This document shows, in pieces, positions 43,564 to 50,788 of a stretch of 64,000 bases of DNA (positions are counted from its first letter, which is position 1; each line of letters starts with the position of its first letter). Source of the DNA: Bacillus cereus (GTDB lineage: Bacteria > Bacillota > Bacilli > Bacillales > Bacillaceae_G); contig NZ_NUOT01000024.1 in assembly GCF_002584535.1 (NCBI RefSeq), forward strand, positions 124,001 through 188,000, in the 5' to 3' direction. A model generated the notes under the pieces. That model was not told where the DNA came from. It saw only the letters and a list, made by a program, of their open reading frames with translations, and ran no database searches. The translations under genes were made by a program, and so were the position numbers.

Positions 43564-43634
43564 TATATGAAAAAGAGGGGTAACAATGTTACTGAGCGTT
43601 TGTTTGATTCATCAATTGTTGGCTTCATAATAAA

Positions 43635-43655
43635 TGATAATGGTTATCATTATCA
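43635..43655. promoter_or_regulatory. Fur box 1 (distal)
   Basis: TGATAATGGTTATCATTATC and the next A match the classical 19-base Fur operator GATAATGATAATCATTATC closely, with overlapping 6-1-6 repeats. It lies just upstream of the -35 region at 43698. Confidence 0.85.
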
Positions 43656-43697
43656 TTGTCAATACTTTTCTTAATGTTTTTTGTGGAAAATTTAAAT

Positions 43698-43726
43698 TTT
43701 ACAAAAAATTAATTTTATAATATAAT
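43698..43726 (+). promoter_or_regulatory. Promoter of the iron-regulated lipoprotein gene
   Basis: TTTACA (43698-43703), 17-base spacer, consensus TATAAT (43721-43726). Fur boxes stand on either side. Confidence 0.8.
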
Positions 43727-43738
43727 GAAAACGTTTAT

Positions 43739-43755
43739 TTGATAATAATTATCAA
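43739..43755. promoter_or_regulatory. Fur box 2 (at the transcription start)
   Basis: TTGATAATAATTATCAA is a perfect 8-1-8 palindrome containing TGATAAT-A-ATTATCA, the 7-1-7 Bacillus Fur consensus. It covers the first transcribed bases, so iron-loaded Fur would block the promoter. Confidence 0.9.
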
Positions 43756-43779
43756 TGTTAATTAAGGGAGCGGGAATGA

Positions 43780-45840
43780 ATGAAAAAGCCATGGAAAGTC
43801 ATGACGACAGTTGCTGTTGTTTCTTCACTTCTACTATCAGTAGGGTGTGCAGGGAAAAAAGAAGAAACGTCAAAAGAAAAAAATACATATCGTATACCAG
43901 TAACTGATTATTCGTTTGATACAGCAGCAAATATGTTTGCATATACGGAATTTGAATTGTCTGGGGAACCATTAGCAGAAGGACTTGGATTAGATTTAGA
44001 CATATTGGATGCACAAAAACGAAATAAACCAACGAAATTTGATTACATGGCTGGAATTGAATCTTATGAGTACTCAGAAGAAGCAATGTATGAGGTTGTT
44101 GAGAAATCCGGTCTTGGACTGCATTTACTGCACGCACCAATTGTACAAAAAATGACAAAAGCAGAAAATAAAGATGTTCCTACTTGGTTAGAGAGTCGAT
44201 TTTATACATTAGCTGATAGTGTAGGGTATCCACGTAAAGAAATATTTACAAATATGTACCCGACATTTATGGAATATGCTGGCGGTGATCCGCATTATAC
44301 ACAAAAGGTGGATACTTCTGTATATGCAGAAAACGATGATAAAACATATGTACCAGCGTACCAAATGGATTTTAAAACATTACGCTGGGATCGTACGAAA
44401 ATGAATAAAACGTTAACACCAGCAGCGTACGGTTCAACGTTTTTAAAACAAACATTATGGGCTGGGGACTTTTTAGGTGGTTTCCATACATTAGATAAAG
44501 ATGAAGAGTTAGAGGCAACATCAAGCACACAAGATAAAGATGCAAATATTCGTCTTGGAAAAAGTAGTGCAGATGGTATGCAAGGAGTGATTTTAACAGA
44601 AGAAATTTGGAATAAGCTTGCATATATTCGTGATGGATTATTTTATGATGCGAATGCAAAACAATTAACGAGCGGAATTGGAAGTAAATATAATCCAGAT
44701 AACGGCCTTGTTTATTTACCACATGAGATTAAAGTAAATGAAGAAGAAAAAGGCGGAATTGCAAAAGCTGGCGGATTAGAAGTGAAAGATGCACGCAGTA
44801 TGCTTCGTGATCAGTGGATGATGTTATGGCCAACAGCAGAATTTTTCGGAATGACGGATCAACGTCCCGATAATAAAAATGTAAATCCAGCCTTCCAAGC
44901 GACATTCGATGGTGCGCCATTTGCCAAAGCGGTAGCAGAAAATACAGATCTTGATGTAGTGAATGATGTAAAAGCAGATGACCCATATTCTTTAAATCGT
45001 GATGTAATGCTACATGTATTTAAAAATATTGAAGCGATGCACTACAATAAAGAAACAGGAGCATTTGTTGCAGAGCATAGCGGAACAGAGCAAGGAAAAC
45101 GAATTGATACATTTGATGCAAGTTATATGGTAGAAGCACTTCGTATGTTCCAGCGTGCGATTGATGGAATGCCAGTGGGATATGCCAGTGGTGCAGAGGC
45201 ACAAGGGTTACAAACAGAAGAAGGAAAACGTGCACTTACTATGATTAAGACACAAGCAGACTTTTTGTTAAAAAATATGAAAACAAAAGATGGTTTCATA
45301 GCAAATGGCTATACAATCGGTAAAGGGGTAGATGAGGAACCTGTAACACTAGAAGCACAACTAGGAGCAATTCGTGGGTTAACAGCGGCCTTTCTAGCAA
45401 CGAAAGATGAAACGTATCGCGTGGAAGCACGTAAACTATATGATTTAGTTGATCGTAAAATGTGGAATAAAGAAGCTCGTGCATATGAAACGAAAAAAGG
45501 TGAAATGAAATATACACCATATACAGCTGGTAGCGTATCAGCAGTTTTACGCGTTGCATTACAAAACTTAAGTAACACAGATGCAGATAAAACGAAATAT
45601 GATTCATTGGAACAAAAAGTAATTACTTCTCGTTATGTTGATTTTTATGAGCAAGTAATCAATGGACCATCATTAAAAGAAGGAATGCAAACAAGTGAAT
45701 TTTGGGATACTGGAGATGTTTATATAAAAGGAAAGCTTGGAAATGCTGATAAGGATAACGTACCACAAATTCAAGCTGGGCATGGTAAGAATGGTATTGC
45801 TCCGGTTCTTGTAAATGTTGAAGTGAAAAAAGAGAAATAA
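43780..45840 (+). CDS. Large Fur-regulated lipoprotein of unknown function
   Basis: 686 residues. The lipobox is SSLLLSVGC, with Cys at about residue 23, so it is anchored on the outer face of the membrane. The N-terminal half (about 35-330) holds conserved-looking aromatic segments such as WAGDFLGGFHTLDKDEE; its GxHxxD recalls, but does not equal, the imelysin GxHxxE motif. The C-terminal half (about 380-640) has repeated helical pairs (FDASYMVEALRMFQRAI, TLEAQLGAIRGLTAAFLATK, SVSAVLRVALQNL), suggesting a six-hairpin or alpha-toroid fold as in glycosidases and lyases. Two Fur boxes show iron control. Family not recognised; a role in iron acquisition or surface redox is inference. Confidence 0.8.
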   Translation: MKKPWKVMTTVAVVSSLLLSVGCAGKKEETSKEKNTYRIPVTDYSFDTAANMFAYTEFELSGEPLAEGLGLDLDILDAQKRNKPTKFDYMAGIESYEYSEEAMYEVVEKSGLGLHLLHAPIVQKMTKAENKDVPTWLESRFYTLADSVGYPRKEIFTNMYPTFMEYAGGDPHYTQKVDTSVYAENDDKTYVPAYQMDFKTLRWDRTKMNKTLTPAAYGSTFLKQTLWAGDFLGGFHTLDKDEELEATSSTQDKDANIRLGKSSADGMQGVILTEEIWNKLAYIRDGLFYDANAKQLTSGIGSKYNPDNGLVYLPHEIKVNEEEKGGIAKAGGLEVKDARSMLRDQWMMLWPTAEFFGMTDQRPDNKNVNPAFQATFDGAPFAKAVAENTDLDVVNDVKADDPYSLNRDVMLHVFKNIEAMHYNKETGAFVAEHSGTEQGKRIDTFDASYMVEALRMFQRAIDGMPVGYASGAEAQGLQTEEGKRALTMIKTQADFLLKNMKTKDGFIANGYTIGKGVDEEPVTLEAQLGAIRGLTAAFLATKDETYRVEARKLYDLVDRKMWNKEARAYETKKGEMKYTPYTAGSVSAVLRVALQNLSNTDADKTKYDSLEQKVITSRYVDFYEQVINGPSLKEGMQTSEFWDTGDVYIKGKLGNADKDNVPQIQAGHGKNGIAPVLVNVEVKKEK

Positions 45841-45872
45841 GAAAAACAAGAAAAAGCAATTCATGGTAGTAT

Positions 45873-45909
45873 TAAGACCGAACAAGTGTAGAAACTTGTT
45901 CGGTTTTTG
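45873..45909 (+). terminator. Terminator between the lipoprotein and the di-haem gene
   Basis: AAGACCGAACAAGT... pairs with ACTTGTTCGGTTTTT. The next gene must use read-through or its own promoter. Confidence 0.88.
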
Positions 45910-46036
45910 TGAAGTAAGGGTGTAGTAAGATGATACATTCATTGATGAGATTTTATAGACTAGTATCCACCAGTTTAATTGTCAATTTTTAAGTGGTAGG
46001 AATGTTGTCTAATGAGGGATAAGAAGGAAGGGTCAG

Positions 46037-47998
46037 ATGATGAAGCGCTTGTTTATTGCGGTTGTGTTGCTTCTATGCATTGGGGTGTTTGCGAGTTGCG
46101 AAGTGAAAATGTCAGGAAAAGAAGTAAAACGCGACGAAGCTGTTCATAGTAATAATATTATAGTAAGCAAAGATGGAAAATGGATTTATACTGCAAATAT
46201 TGATGTAAATACTGTAACGGTGACAGATGTAAAAAGTAGAAAAGTAGTATCGGAGATTCCAGTTGGAAAAGAACCGAGACAATTAACAATAAGTCCAGAT
46301 GAAAAGACATTATATGTTTCTTGTATGTATGATAATAAGATAGATGTTGTATCATTGGAAAAGAAAAAAGTGATTGATCGAATTGTAACAGAAATAGAGC
46401 CATTTGGTATTGTTACAAATCCAGATGGGACAAAGTTGTACGTATCAAATTTCCGTTCAGGGAATGTATCAGTTATTGATATTGATAAGAAAAAAACAAT
46501 TCAAAAGATTCAAATTGGCGACCGTCCACGAACGTTAGCGATGACAAAAGACGGGAAAAAATTGTATGTGCCACATTATTTAGAGGGGAAAATTAGTGTT
46601 GTAGATACAGAGAGTAATAAAGTAAAGAAAGTAATTACGCTTGCTCCTTCCCCAGACAAAGAAGACCGTAAAAAGAGTCAAGGGGTTCCAAATACATTAG
46701 AGCAATTTGTAATTGCACCAGATGGTAAGACAGCTTGGGTGCCACACATGCTGACGAATACCGATACACCAATTCAATTTGAGGAAACTGTGTTTCCAGC
46801 TGTTTCAATTATCGATTTAGAAAAAGATGAAGAAGTTACAAAACAACGTAAGCAATTATTTGAAGCGATGAATGTGAAAGATACAAAGAATGAAACAATG
46901 ATTGTGTCTAATCCATACGATGTAGTTTTTAATGAAAAAGGGACGAAAGTATTTGTTGTTATGTCAGGTAGTGAAGATCTTGTCATGTTTGATCTAACTC
47001 GCGGTGGCAATGCGACACAAATTGTAAGACGCATTCCAGGAAGTAACCCGCGGGGGATTATTTTACTTCCAAAAGAAAACACGTTGGCTGTTCATAATGC
47101 AATGAGTCATGACCTGGCATTTCTACAAACAGGTGGCGATGATTCATACGCAAAGGTGAAAGCTGATAAGAAGACAGTTAAATTAATTGAAAAAGATTCT
47201 TTACCAAAACTAGTACGCGAAGGGAAAGAAATTTTTTATAGTGCAAATAGTGATAAGTATGCAACAACAATAACCGGAAACAACTGGATGAGTTGTGTGA
47301 CGTGTCATAGTGATGGAGAAATTAATGGGTTATCATTGATGACACCAAAAGGGAAACGAAATGTACCAAGTAATGTTTTAACTACTCAAACAGGTTTATT
47401 TATGTGGGATGGATCACGTGATGATTTCACAGATTATATTCACACTGTACAAGGTGAAATGGGGGGGATGATGGAATTAGATCCAGGAAAAGAGATTCCA
47501 AAAGATGCCCAGCATATGTATGATGCGCTGCAGGCATTTTTAGATGATCCTAATTCATTCCCAGTACCAAAGAGCCCGTATCGTCAAGCTGATGGCTCGT
47601 TAACTCCTACGGCCAAAGACGGAGAGCAATTGTTTAAAGGAAAGGCAAATTGCTTAACATGCCACGGCGGAGAGAATTTGACCAATAGTACAAAAGCGAT
47701 AGATGAAAATGGAAAGTTGACAACGAATAATACAAATTTCCTTTATAATATTGGAACTGCGAATGAAACAGATACAGGCTATGAGGGTGACGCACGCGGT
47801 GGTTTTCAAAATAAGCGGCAAAAAGGATTTTTTGATCCACCAACACTTCGTGGTGTAGGGGCAACAGCACCATATTTACATGATGGTAGTGCAAAAACAA
47901 TTGAGGAAGCAGTAGAGAAGCATCAATATGAAGAAAAGCCGCAGTTATCTAAACAGGAAGTTCATGCAATTGCAGAATATGTAAAAGCGATTCAATAG
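46037..47998 (+). CDS. Beta-propeller/di-haem cytochrome c fusion lipoprotein
   Basis: 653 residues. The N-terminus (MMKRLFIAVVLLLCIGVFASC) looks like a lipoprotein signal with Cys near residue 21. Residues about 40-380 form a YVTN-type seven-bladed propeller (WIYTANIDVNTVTVTDVKSR, LYVSNFRSGNVSVIDIDKKK, LYVPHYLEGKISVVDTESNK). Residues about 400-653 form a MauG/cytochrome c peroxidase-like di-haem domain with CVTCH and CLTCH and distal PTLRGVGATAPYLHDG. Similar propeller/di-haem fusions act in quinol or metal redox. ATG follows GAAGGAAGGG. It is separated from the Fur-controlled lipoprotein by a terminator, but the genes run the same way. Confidence 0.87.
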   Translation: MMKRLFIAVVLLLCIGVFASCEVKMSGKEVKRDEAVHSNNIIVSKDGKWIYTANIDVNTVTVTDVKSRKVVSEIPVGKEPRQLTISPDEKTLYVSCMYDNKIDVVSLEKKKVIDRIVTEIEPFGIVTNPDGTKLYVSNFRSGNVSVIDIDKKKTIQKIQIGDRPRTLAMTKDGKKLYVPHYLEGKISVVDTESNKVKKVITLAPSPDKEDRKKSQGVPNTLEQFVIAPDGKTAWVPHMLTNTDTPIQFEETVFPAVSIIDLEKDEEVTKQRKQLFEAMNVKDTKNETMIVSNPYDVVFNEKGTKVFVVMSGSEDLVMFDLTRGGNATQIVRRIPGSNPRGIILLPKENTLAVHNAMSHDLAFLQTGGDDSYAKVKADKKTVKLIEKDSLPKLVREGKEIFYSANSDKYATTITGNNWMSCVTCHSDGEINGLSLMTPKGKRNVPSNVLTTQTGLFMWDGSRDDFTDYIHTVQGEMGGMMELDPGKEIPKDAQHMYDALQAFLDDPNSFPVPKSPYRQADGSLTPTAKDGEQLFKGKANCLTCHGGENLTNSTKAIDENGKLTTNNTNFLYNIGTANETDTGYEGDARGGFQNKRQKGFFDPPTLRGVGATAPYLHDGSAKTIEEAVEKHQYEEKPQLSKQEVHAIAEYVKAIQ

Positions 47999-48335: not shown

Positions 48336-48875
48336 TTATGCAATACCGATATATTTTAAAGTTTTTGATGGGGTACTGTGATCAAAGAAGTGTTGTAAGA
48401 ATGCAATATCAACACCAGATTTGTATGCACAATATCCCCAAGTTTTTCGCAGTGTATGTGAGCTAATCCCTTCTAAACCAACTTCTTTTGCAGCTTTGTT
48501 TAAAATATACCATGCATGCTGTCTTGTAATGGATTTTGTTCCTTTTTGCGATTTTAATAATGGTTCATTTCGCTTCCATATTTTACGCTCTCTCATATAA
48601 TCTTCGATTGCATGCTGTAAATCTTCATTTACAGCAAACCATTTATGTTTTTTTACTTTTTCATTGTAAAATAAAATGGAGTGACGAACATTTTCATTTT
48701 CATCGATGACATCACCGACTTTTAATTGTAAAATCTCACTTACTTTTAGACCGGAATTTACAGCTAGTACGAATAGTAAGCCATCACGTTTCGAAGATTG
48801 TAAAAGTATATTTTTGATTTTTTCTAATTGTGTTTCGTTTTGAATAGGTTGTCCTGCTTGTTTCATTTCACGCAC
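48336..48875 (-). CDS. Short tyrosine recombinase/integrase family protein
   Basis: 179 residues, only the catalytic domain; the usual N-terminal SAM-like arm-binding domain is absent. HTLRKTWG supplies the conserved HxxR, FFDHSTPSKTLKYIGI supplies the late His and the nucleophile Tyr. The first catalytic Arg, normally in GLRxSE, is Lys here (NSGLKVSEIL). That substitution would weaken or abolish cleavage. No attachment sites or mobile genes are adjacent. It may be a domesticated DNA-binding protein. Confidence 0.82.
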   Translation of the reverse strand: MREMKQAGQPIQNETQLEKIKNILLQSSKRDGLLFVLAVNSGLKVSEILQLKVGDVIDENENVRHSILFYNEKVKKHKWFAVNEDLQHAIEDYMRERKIWKRNEPLLKSQKGTKSITRQHAWYILNKAAKEVGLEGISSHTLRKTWGYCAYKSGVDIAFLQHFFDHSTPSKTLKYIGIA

Positions 48876-48973
48876 TCTCCTCTGTTATGTGTGTAAAGGA
48901 AAGGATTAACTTGTTTATAACTATAAAGGGAGAGTGTGAATTTCATGTGAACTCCTGGTGAAGTTAAGACAAA

Positions 48974-50788
48974 TTATTTGACTTCTTTTATTTTTTGTAA
49001 ATCAAAATAAAAAACGACGCTATCATTAGTATTATACACACCGTATTCGGCATGATGAAGTTCTAAAATGTTTTTTACGATTGATAGACCAAGTCCAGTT
49101 CCTCCAGTATGGCGGCTACGGGAAGCATCTAGACGATAGAAGCGATCCCATATTTTTTCTAAACTTTCATTTGGGATTGGATTACCAGTGTTTTCAATTT
49201 CCACTTTTACTTTTTCTTCATTTTCTATGATGCGAATACGAATCTCTTTACCATCAGGTGTATAGCGAATTGCGTTACTGAGTAAATTTACAACAACTTG
49301 CTCAATTCGATTGCGATTTGCTTCAACATGTATAGAAGGATTTGCATCAATTTCTACTTGTAAGTGTTTTTCCTCCATACTAAATAATAGCTTTGTATAC
49401 ACTTGGTGAACAAGTTCACCGATTGAAAAAGTATTCATTTCTAGTTTATACGTACCAGATTCTAGTTTTGCTAATTCTAACATTTCGACGATGAGTCGAT
49501 TCATGTTTTCTGTTTCCTCTAAAATCACATCTGTATAGTAAGTAGTATCTTTGCTGACACCATCTTTAATTCCTTCAGCAAAGCTTCTAATCACACTAAG
49601 TGGCGTTTTTAATTCATGAGATACACCAGAAATGAATTCTTTTCTCGTCTTTTCTAATTGACGTTCTCGCTCGATGTCTTGCTGTAATTTTGTATTTGCA
49701 ACGTTTAATCGATCTATTCGATCTTTTAGGTTTACGGATAACGTATTAATACTACTAGATAAACCAGCGATTTCATCATCCGCTGAAACAGGTAATTTTT
49801 CACTGAAATCGAAGTTAGCCATTTTTTTGGTCACTCGATTTATTTTAATAAGCGGTTTGACAATCATCTTTGAATAATAAAAAGATAATAAAATAATAAC
49901 GAGAAATACGATAATTAATGCATAGACATAATAATCTTTTAAAACAAGCATTGCTTCATTTACAGGTTGTAAGGAGGTCGTTGCAAAAGCAAACTCTTTA
50001 ATTTTACCGTTTTCCATGACTGGCTTTACAAAAATTTGGCTTTTTCCATTCTCCTCTTCTCCGATTGTAAATGTTGTCAATTCATTGGAATTGGTTTTAC
50101 CTAGTATTACAGATAACTCCCAATGTTGAATCCCTTGTAATGTCTCTAAATTATTTGCGAGACGAAGGTCGTTTTTAGAAGGAAGATGTATTTTTGATAC
50201 AATTCCTTCAAATGTATGAATGCCAAGTCTTGTGTCTTTTGCGTATTTGTTTTTCTTAGCGTTTGTCCAATCAATATTGAATAATTTAAAGTCAGAAATG
50301 ATATTATCATTTTTCCATGAATTATAACGAGTCGTAATCGTAACGGGTATAATTACGTCTTTTTTTAAAATTCCATCTATGAGAATAACATCATTATTTT
50401 TTAACTGTAAATTCATAAACTTGGTATATTCATCAATTGTTAAAATATTGTTGAGTGGAATGGAATACGTTTTATTGGATTTATCGACAATCTCAATATA
50501 GTAATTATTTTCATCTTTTATAATTCCATTTGGATCTAATAAAACGACATCAGCGTTTGTTTTTTCGTGAAAGTCTTGTTTGAGCTTCCTTATTTCCTCA
50601 AATGTCCTGTCACTTTTTTCATAATTTGATAAAAACTTTTCAAAAGCAGTTTGAACGGTTTGAACTTTTTTATTAATATAAAATTTTTCTAAAAACAACG
50701 ATTGCCCAAGGAAAAAAAGGAGGAAGGTAACAGTAAATAATGTTGATGTTAATAAAAATAGTTTAAAGACAATACTTCTCTTTTTCAC
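48974..50788 (-). CDS. Transmembrane sensor histidine kinase (HAMP type), no adjacent regulator
   Basis: 604 residues from a GTG start after GAGGTGAAG. One helix lies at about 9-30, then a large extracellular sensor region (about 31-285), then a second helix (about 287-307). A HAMP domain (PLIKINRVTKKMANFDFSEK) follows. HisKA has FISGVSHELKTPLSVIRSFAEG. The ATPase domain has NLLSNAIRYTPDG and GGTGLGLSIVKN. No response regulator gene flanks it: downstream is the recombinase and upstream is deoD. The ligand is unknown. Confidence 0.9.
   Translation of the reverse strand: MKKRSIVFKLFLLTSTLFTVTFLLFFLGQSLFLEKFYINKKVQTVQTAFEKFLSNYEKSDRTFEEIRKLKQDFHEKTNADVVLLDPNGIIKDENNYYIEIVDKSNKTYSIPLNNILTIDEYTKFMNLQLKNNDVILIDGILKKDVIIPVTITTRYNSWKNDNIISDFKLFNIDWTNAKKNKYAKDTRLGIHTFEGIVSKIHLPSKNDLRLANNLETLQGIQHWELSVILGKTNSNELTTFTIGEEENGKSQIFVKPVMENGKIKEFAFATTSLQPVNEAMLVLKDYYVYALIIVFLVIILLSFYYSKMIVKPLIKINRVTKKMANFDFSEKLPVSADDEIAGLSSSINTLSVNLKDRIDRLNVANTKLQQDIERERQLEKTRKEFISGVSHELKTPLSVIRSFAEGIKDGVSKDTTYYTDVILEETENMNRLIVEMLELAKLESGTYKLEMNTFSIGELVHQVYTKLLFSMEEKHLQVEIDANPSIHVEANRNRIEQVVVNLLSNAIRYTPDGKEIRIRIIENEEKVKVEIENTGNPIPNESLEKIWDRFYRLDASRSRHTGGTGLGLSIVKNILELHHAEYGVYNTNDSVVFYFDLQKIKEVK

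What the first reader, a model, noticed from the sequence alone, without database searches (positions are those of the whole stretch)
43629..47998. Fur-controlled lipoprotein next to a lipid-anchored propeller/di-haem cytochrome: candidate surface redox module for iron starvation
Seen: two Fur boxes around a consensus promoter, a 686-residue lipoprotein with no recognisable family, then a same-strand 653-residue lipoprotein fusing a YVTN propeller to a domain with two CxxCH motifs. Known: MauG-like di-haem proteins oxidise partners and some accompany metal-handling proteins. Inference: the pair may reduce, oxidise or bind ferric complexes at the Gram-positive cell surface, the first protein being substrate or scaffold. 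Iron repression of a haem protein's neighbour is unusual, because cells normally cut haem use when iron is short.
Basis: partly seen in the sequence, partly recalled or inferred. Interest (0 to 1): 0.72.

Follow-up and report, generated by a model that had tools for sequence, protein, structure and literature searches.

The report
Iron-starvation surface haem peroxidase pair
Two neighbouring surface-anchored proteins, one a sugar-enzyme-like barrel of unknown role and one a two-haem peroxidase-like protein, are inherited together, sit behind an iron-repressed switch, and probably form an undescribed oxidising unit that helps a separate iron pump feed starving bacteria.

Summary
Window 43780-45840 encodes a 686-aa lipoprotein without Pfam or NCBIfam match; 46037-47998 encodes a lipobox-bearing YVTN propeller fused to a di-haem CCP/MauG-type domain. 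Fur boxes (one exact, one with one mismatch) flank a TTTACA-17-TATAAT promoter. The pair is real: 28 of 299 genomes of the order hold the lipoprotein, the same 28 the haem protein, always next door. A Fur-like box precedes the lipoprotein in 33 of 34 Bacillota loci. In six relatives a second one precedes the haem gene; not in the window, where a terminator-like hairpin lies between. The lipoprotein is predicted to be an (alpha/alpha)6 toroid. New link: all 37 tested pair-bearing Bacillota genomes carry an FTR1/EfeU iron permease; none of 28 carries EfeB (DyP). In one Aeromonas a propeller-multihaem homologue overlaps the FTR1 gene (TGATG). Best reading: an EfeB-like oxidase unit for an EfeU-type iron importer. 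Against: a tree-aware test was not significant, and 57 genomes have FTR1 with neither pair, EfeB nor canonical imelysin. MauG/MbnH-type maturation is weakened: no Tyr at the aligned ligand position. No iron response or activity was measured.

The parts
43635..43661 (+). upstream Fur-box cluster (TGATAATGGTTATCA, 1 mismatch, with overlapping 2- and 3-mismatch registers)
   Evidence: 145 nt before the start codon
43698..43726 (+). sigma-70-type promoter TTTACA-17 nt-TATAAT
   Evidence: 11 of 12 matches; the scan as a whole shows no excess over shuffles
43740..43754 (+). exact Fur box TGATAATAATTATCA just downstream of the -10
   Evidence: a Fur-like box (at most 3 mismatches) within 200 nt in 33 of 34 Bacillota loci, window included
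43780..45840 (+). lipoprotein, 686 aa, lipobox Cys23; predicted (alpha/alpha)6 toroid; many invariant acidic and some His residues in the N-terminal half
45874..45907 (+). terminator-like hairpin between the two genes (14-bp stem, 6-nt loop, U-rich 3' side)
   Evidence: z -5.2, 0 of 200 shuffles fold as well; not listed by the scan
46037..47998 (+). lipobox-bearing (Cys21) YVTN propeller (about residues 35-385) fused to a CCP/MauG-type di-haem domain (about 390-653; CxxCH at 420 and 539, W457, E474-M475, H629)

Best explanation
The pair is the extracytoplasmic oxidase unit of a Fur-repressed, EfeUOB-like iron importer whose permease lies elsewhere in the genome. Under iron shortage Fur leaves the box over the promoter; the lipoprotein and, by co-transcription or its own promoter, the propeller/di-haem protein are made and anchored outside the membrane. 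The di-haem domain, with the conserved Glu-Met and bridging Trp of peroxidases, takes electrons from Fe2+ (or another donor) using peroxide or oxygen, so that ferric iron reaches an imelysin-like binding protein and the FTR1 permease, which form a second Fur-boxed operon. It does the job that the DyP peroxidase EfeB does in classical EfeUOB and Fet3 does in yeast. The (alpha/alpha)6 lipoprotein is most likely the dedicated partner that holds iron or its ligand near the haem protein. Shown by sequence: the pair, Fur-like boxes, lipoboxes, co-occurrence with FTR1, absence of EfeB, overlap of a haem-protein homologue with FTR1 in one Aeromonas. Inferred: iron oxidation, electron flow, iron binding by the lipoprotein, and that the window's own genome carries the permease (its genome is not held).
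For: Pair: 14 of 14 loci; 28 of 28 carriers among 299 genomes, adjacent and on one strand by coordinates. Fur-like box in 33 of 34 Bacillota loci; a second box before the haem gene in 6 loci with 82-96 nt gaps, 2-3 mismatches, reached by 2-66 of 2000 shuffles. FTR1: 28 of 28 carriers against 95 of 271 non-carriers, 9 of 9 further pair-bearing Bacillota and the A. caviae record. EfeB/DyP: 0 of 28 against 37 of 271; canonical imelysin over cut-off: 0 of 28 against 38 of 271. In 20 of 20 FTR1 loci examined (12 of the 28 carriers, 8 of the 57 FTR1-only genomes, my choice) FTR1 follows a secreted protein behind an exact Fur box; that protein has weak imelysin similarity in 3 of 3 tested (E 0.004-0.016, under the cut-off). 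Both REXXE motifs in 20 of 20 and in A. caviae. A. caviae: a homologue of the haem protein (30 % over 584 aa, E 2e-71 in a small comparison) overlaps the FTR1 gene (TGATG), with homologues of the imelysin-like and membrane genes downstream. W457, Q472, E474, M475, H615 and both CxxCH invariant in the 16 complete sequences.
Against: The tree-aware test found only 4 independent contrasts: FTR1 goes the same way in 1.6 on average, the other way in 0, median p 0.5. 58 of 123 FTR1 genomes have neither the pair nor EfeB (57 also lack canonical imelysin), and the 8 of these examined have the same FTR1 cluster, so FTR1 does not need the pair. In the Bacillota loci seen the pair is not next to FTR1. 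The Aeromonas haem protein has six CxxCH, lies about 80 kb from the lipoprotein homologue, and no good Fur box was found at either gene (best 4-5 mismatches before the lipoprotein homologue; none with up to 2 in the 14 kb around FTR1). In the window the genes are separated by a terminator-like hairpin and the haem gene has no Fur box. FTR1 in the window's genome could not be checked. No activity or expression data: in the one related iron-starvation array of which I saw passages (PMC2742718, top-50 table) I could not match gene names.
Confidence: 0.5

Rival explanations
1. The di-haem protein is a MauG/MbnH-type maturase that oxidises Trp or Tyr residues of the lipoprotein to build a metal site or cofactor, as MbnH does to MbnP (recalled).
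For: Similarity to the MbnH family model (E 3.5e-19) and the TTQ MauG model (1.7e-10); one-to-one pairing with a partner protein; Trp203, 227, 346 and 350 invariant in 34 Bacillota loci and A. caviae. A Tyr (Y631) lies two residues after the aligned position in 11 of 16 sequences.
Against: Far below the MbnH model's cut-off (69 against 362.85 bits). The position that aligns without gap with Tyr312 of 6e1c carries His629 in 12 of 16 and Arg or Lys with a His a few residues on in the other 4, never Tyr. In A. caviae the lipoprotein homologue is not beside the haem gene.
Confidence: 0.15
2. The haem protein is a surface peroxidase that protects iron-starved cells or their siderophores from H2O2, with no direct part in transport.
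For: All peroxidase-type residues conserved; no His between the first CxxCH and the Trp in the window protein, which suggests an open catalytic haem without reductive activation (inference); genes that look, by eye, like catechol-siderophore synthesis beside the lipoprotein homologue in A. caviae.
Against: Does not explain the partner lipoprotein, the FTR1 co-occurrence, the exclusion of EfeB, or the FTR1 overlap in A. caviae.
Confidence: 0.2
3. The lipoprotein is a glycan- or ligand-processing enzyme of the (alpha/alpha)6 class that frees iron from a host or microbial chelate, and the haem protein only supplies oxidation.
Against: In the only alignment seen, weak (E 0.18), the position of the GH88 catalytic Asp (recalled; Asn in that entry) meets an invariant Ala526. 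A shared fold shows no function. No glycosidase or epimerase family reaches its cut-off.
Confidence: 0.12

Closest known systems
EfeUOB (YwbLMN in B. subtilis; FepABC in S. aureus)
   Same: Iron-regulated in many cases, FTR1-type permease, extracytoplasmic haem peroxidase, imelysin-type binding protein (PMC9174327 and PMC3143127, passages).
   Different: Peroxidase candidate is a c-type di-haem domain fused to a propeller with a lipobox, not a DyP; extra (alpha/alpha)6 lipoprotein; pair not in the permease operon in the Bacillota loci seen; imelysin partner too divergent for the family cut-off.
Imelysin/di-haem (DUF1111/DHOR) operons, e.g. PA4370-PA4373 and the Leptospira lruB operon
   Same: Fur- or iron-controlled di-haem peroxidase-like protein with imelysin partners, some of them lipoproteins (PMC3143127, PMC13066512, passages).
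   Different: Partner here is a predicted (alpha/alpha)6 toroid with no imelysin match; the DHOR model hits only at E 0.007, under cut-off; propeller fused.
MauG/preMADH and MbnH/MbnP (pairings recalled)
   Same: CCP_MauG-type di-haem protein with one dedicated partner.
   Different: No Tyr at the aligned axial position; partner matches no NCBIfam family; below family cut-offs.
Hydrazine synthase beta and gamma subunits
   Same: Propeller plus di-haem domain; best PDB match of the di-haem domain (5c2v_C, E 9e-13).
   Different: 105 bits against a cut-off of 1250 for the fused model. An alpha subunit was not searched for.
FTR1 with a cupredoxin and a kelch protein in Leptospirillum
   Same: FTR1 permease next to candidate oxidase genes, one with kelch motifs (PMC2631029, passages).
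   Different: Kelch and cupredoxin instead of YVTN propeller/di-haem; relatedness not tested.

Membership tests
EfeUOB system | FTR1/EfeU permease with two REXXE motifs in the genome | tested here: met
   37 of 37 tested pair-bearing Bacillota genomes; REXXE twice in 20 of 20 loci examined, 12 of them from carriers. Not testable for the window's own genome.
EfeUOB system | DyP-type haem peroxidase EfeB | tested here: not met
   0 of 28 pair-bearing genomes against 37 of 271 others; the haem protein is c-type di-haem.
EfeUOB system | M75/imelysin binding protein EfeO | tested here: inconclusive
   0 of 28 reach the PF09375 cut-off, but the secreted protein beside FTR1 matches it weakly in 3 of 3 tested (E 0.004-0.016).
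EfeUOB system | peroxidase gene in the permease operon | tested here: not met
   Not in the 12 pair-bearing FTR1 loci examined. Met for the haem homologue in one Aeromonas record.
MauG/MbnH di-haem enzymes | two CxxCH in a CCP_MauG domain | tested here: met
   PF03150 30.4 bits, cut-off 25.6; CxxCH twice in 16 of 16 complete sequences.
MauG/MbnH di-haem enzymes | Tyr axial ligand (recalled) | tested here: not met
   His629 aligns with Tyr312 of 6e1c and with the Met of 1nml; no Tyr in that column in 16 sequences, though Y631 follows two residues on in 11. Alignment-based only; the model's di-haem domain is poor.
MauG/MbnH di-haem enzymes | family model cut-off | tested here: not met
   TIGR04039 69 of 362.85 bits; TIGR03791 40.6 of 443.85.
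bacterial cytochrome c peroxidase | bridging Trp, Glu-Met and PYxHDG motifs | tested here: met
   W457, E474, M475, Y613, H615-G617 in 16 of 16; WDG and PYxHDG aligned with CCPs. Role of each residue, and the match of Glu-Met to the CCP motif, recalled.
bacterial cytochrome c peroxidase | Met ligand of the electron-transfer haem (recalled) | tested here: not met
   His, Arg or Lys at the column, no Met.
(alpha/alpha)6 glycosidases/epimerases | (alpha/alpha)6 barrel | tested here: met
(alpha/alpha)6 glycosidases/epimerases | family sequence match and catalytic residues | tested here: inconclusive
   No Pfam family for the window protein; weak hits in 5 of 14 relatives, E 0.016 at best; catalytic Asp of GH88 aligns with Ala526 in a weak alignment.
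imelysin (M75) | lipoprotein matches PF09375 | tested here: not met
   0 families up to E 10; not among the 4 families hit by any of 14 members up to E 1.
hydrazine synthase | family model cut-off | tested here: not met
   NF052342 105.4 of 1250; NF052341 49.6 of 625 bits.
Fur regulon member | conserved Fur-like box at the promoter | tested here: met
   33 of 34 loci with at most 3 mismatches, 29 of 34 with at most 2.
Fur regulon member | Fur binding and iron response | not testable with these tools
   needs bench data

The most novel reading that the evidence does not exclude
The pair belongs to an undescribed iron-uptake system of Gram-positive bacteria: an FTR1 permease and imelysin-like protein encoded with a lipid-glycosylation-like set (flippase-like, polyprenyl-phosphate GT2-like, alkaline-phosphatase-superfamily, unknown membrane protein), served at the surface by a di-haem oxidase and an (alpha/alpha)6 lipoprotein that binds a lipid-linked glycan carrying iron.
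Probability: 0.15. Interest if true: 0.8.

Novelty: new variant of a known kind. Interest (0 to 1): 0.6.

Why it matters
If right, it adds a c-type di-haem propeller protein to the short list of oxidases that serve FTR1 permeases, gives a first function to a lipoprotein family without name, and explains how Bacilli with an EfeU-type permease but no EfeB could use ferrous iron. It also makes a testable claim about a surface redox protein that is made when iron is scarce.

Tried and rejected
Zur, PerR and MntR boxes were scanned beside Fur; Fur fitted best or as well in the window and most of the Bacillota loci shown there. A link to zinc was considered because in the Anoxybacillus plasmid a zinc-binding-protein gene and a GTP-binding-protein gene follow the pair on the other strand; not pursued. 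The loose Fur scan of the whole window shows no excess. A scan of viral contigs with the lipoprotein profile found 9 pattern matches and no relative. The Comamonadaceae plasmid hit of the haem protein (27 %) sits beside an SCO gene; no FTR1 is annotated in the stretch shown. Imelysin was not among the listed fold matches, which proves nothing.

The haem protein's predicted structure has a good propeller (residues about 31-200 mostly near or over 90 pLDDT) but an unreliable di-haem domain (409-484 and 537-615 under 50), so ligand geometry was not judged from it. Catalytic residues of the lipoprotein's fold class could not be tested well. My first reading that pair-bearing genomes lack imelysin altogether was given up when the protein beside FTR1 showed weak imelysin similarity. 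Hypergeometric figures (2e-12 for FTR1; EfeB exclusion 0.02 over 299 genomes, 9e-6 within the 123 FTR1 genomes) ignore kinship; the tree-aware test, on 40 genomes (12 of 28 carriers, 8 of 57 FTR1-only, 20 of 176 without FTR1, the first listed), is not significant.

Rows dropped or limited: one search used 34 Bacillota loci, window included, after leaving out L020, L022, L023 and L034 as second copies of L001, L002, L007 and L010; two Aeromonas loci were shown apart (best 5 and 4 mismatches). Gap boxes with shuffles were run for 12 of the 34: six as told, L018 with a 3-mismatch site 97 nt before the gene (95 of 2000), the window, L009, L011, L030 and L032 without a box. Haem-protein columns used the 16 of 34 loci that hold the whole gene. 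In one search the start codons were picked by script, in two loci (L064, L066) across a stop; the box lies upstream of the next start there too. Families of the FTR1 cluster were scanned for L055 only, its secreted protein also for L050 and L052; the rest of the 20 were recognised by eye from N-termini, and the flippase-like gene was not seen in 4 (L057, L061, L063, L064).

Papers: nine searches. Four gave none whose listing described this pair or an FTR1 partner of this build; the others were for context and listed none either. The library is open-licence PubMed Central only. PMC2742718, PMC3143127, PMC13066512, PMC9174327 and PMC2631029: passages seen; PMC3577903: search listing only.
Full report
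What is there. One search lists the two ORFs at the stated places on the + strand. The first (43780-45840) starts with a signal peptide ending SVGC; the second (46037-47998) has a Cys at 21. Both Cys are invariant in alignments with 13 relatives. Upstream of the first lie an exact Fur box (43740-43754), 40 nt before the start, and a one-mismatch box (43635-43649), with TTTACA-17-TATAAT between them. The window's loose Fur scan has no excess, so the weight rests on these two sites and on their conservation. Between the genes are 196 nt with a strong hairpin followed by U residues. The window's genome is not held; gene order suggests the Bacillus cereus group, but that is from memory.

The pair is inseparable so far in Bacillota. 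Fourteen of 14 loci found by sequence have the haem gene directly downstream, as has an Anoxybacillus plasmid. In 299 genomes drawn from the order, 28 have the lipoprotein and the same 28 the haem protein (E up to 1e-60), neighbours on one strand every time by coordinates; in one of them the lipoprotein reading has an in-frame stop. In a phylum sample, 2 of 398 genomes have the lipoprotein. The exception is Aeromonas: the lipoprotein homologue stands alone on the plasmid and chromosome stretches seen.

Fur. A box with at most 3 mismatches to TGAKAATNATTMTCA lies within 200 nt upstream of the lipoprotein in 33 of 34 Bacillota loci, window included, and at most 2 in 29 of 34. Six loci with gaps of 82-96 nt, among them L025, which lacks the upstream box, have a 2-3 mismatch box right before the haem gene; shuffles of the gap reach this in 2 to 66 of 2000. 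So the haem gene itself appears iron-controlled in relatives, through a short operon or its own box. In the window it has neither a short gap nor a box.

The FTR1 link. FTR1 (PF03239) occurs in 123 of 299 genomes: in 28 of 28 with the pair and 95 of 271 without, in 9 of 9 further pair-bearing Bacillota, Brevibacillus, Aneurinibacillus and Seinonella among them, and in the A. caviae record. Two more pair-bearing genomes, the host of the Anoxybacillus plasmid and the window's genome were not tested. EfeB (DyP, PF04261) occurs in 37 of 299 and canonical imelysin over cut-off in 38 of 299, none with the pair. I fetched 20 FTR1 loci (12 of 28 carriers, 8 of 57 FTR1-only genomes). In all 20 FTR1 lies between a secreted protein of about 250 aa and an unknown membrane protein, with a GT2-like and an alkaline-phosphatase-superfamily-like gene upstream, in 16 also a flippase-like gene, and uvrC downstream (by eye; family scans of L055). 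The secreted protein has a faint imelysin match (3 of 3 scanned). An exact Fur box precedes it in 20 of 20. Pair and permease operon are thus both Fur-boxed.

Aeromonas gives the only direct linkage. A. caviae has a 43 % homologue of the lipoprotein (by eye a secreted protein; the script's crude pattern also finds AIAC near its start) near genes that look like catechol-siderophore synthesis. About 80 kb away is a 989-aa propeller protein with six CxxCH, 30 % identical over 584 aa to the window's haem protein. Its stop codon overlaps the start of FTR1 (TGATG); a flavoprotein gene and homologues of the imelysin-like (E 1e-10) and membrane (E 1e-7) genes follow (E-values of a small comparison). 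No Fur box with up to 2 mismatches was found there. This is one record.

How strong is the link? Ignoring kinship the FTR1 association has P 2e-12; the exclusion of EfeB has P 0.02 over all 299 genomes and 9e-6 within the FTR1 genomes. On a UvrC tree of 40 genomes the pair needs 5 changes, and of 4 well-supported independent contrasts FTR1 goes along in 1.6 on average, never against; median p 0.5. The association may therefore partly reflect shared descent. 58 FTR1 genomes have neither pair nor EfeB. That fits the report, as cited in PMC9174327, that EfeU and EfeO of B. subtilis form a minimal complex for ferric iron, with the peroxidase as an addition; the pair would be such an addition.

Mechanism and rivals. 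I favour an oxidase unit for an EfeU-type importer (0.5). A simple surface peroxidase (0.2), a MauG-type maturase (0.15) and a ligand-processing lipoprotein (0.12) remain. What I did not find in print (open-licence library only) is this pair, or its tie to FTR1.

Verdict. Real, conserved and Fur-boxed; a new variant of FTR1-associated haem peroxidase systems by inference, with function untested.

Noticed in passing
L049-L068 (e.g. L055:1972-8401): FTR1 sits in a conserved cluster with GT2-like, alkaline-phosphatase-superfamily-like, in 16 of 20 a flippase-like gene, a faintly imelysin-like secreted protein and an unknown membrane protein, next to uvrC, in the 20 loci fetched; the presence of glycosylation-type genes there is unexplained.
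   Followed up: partly
NZ_AP026896.1 (L017, L048, L080): A 4.94-Mb record labelled plasmid pKAM479_3 of Aeromonas caviae looks like a chromosome by its size.
   Followed up: no
L060 (with pair) and L068 (without): Two genomes with nearly identical UvrC differ in having the pair, pointing to recent gain or loss.
   Followed up: no
L016:13088-15305: On the Anoxybacillus plasmid a zinc ABC transporter substrate-binding protein gene and a GTP-binding protein gene follow the pair on the other strand.
   Followed up: no
G430 / L035: The lipoprotein reading has one in-frame TAA in this genome although the haem gene is open.
   Followed up: no
Aneurinibacillus genome G005, contig C35: FTR1 (48908-49516) and the haem gene (62710-64671) lie about 13 kb apart on one contig.
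   Followed up: no
window 48336-48875: A lone ORF that looks like a tyrosine recombinase (by eye) on the other strand, downstream of the pair.
   Followed up: no
lipoprotein residues about 655-663: A conserved NTDGDNVPQ-like stretch resembles calcium-binding aspartate repeats (recalled).
   Followed up: no
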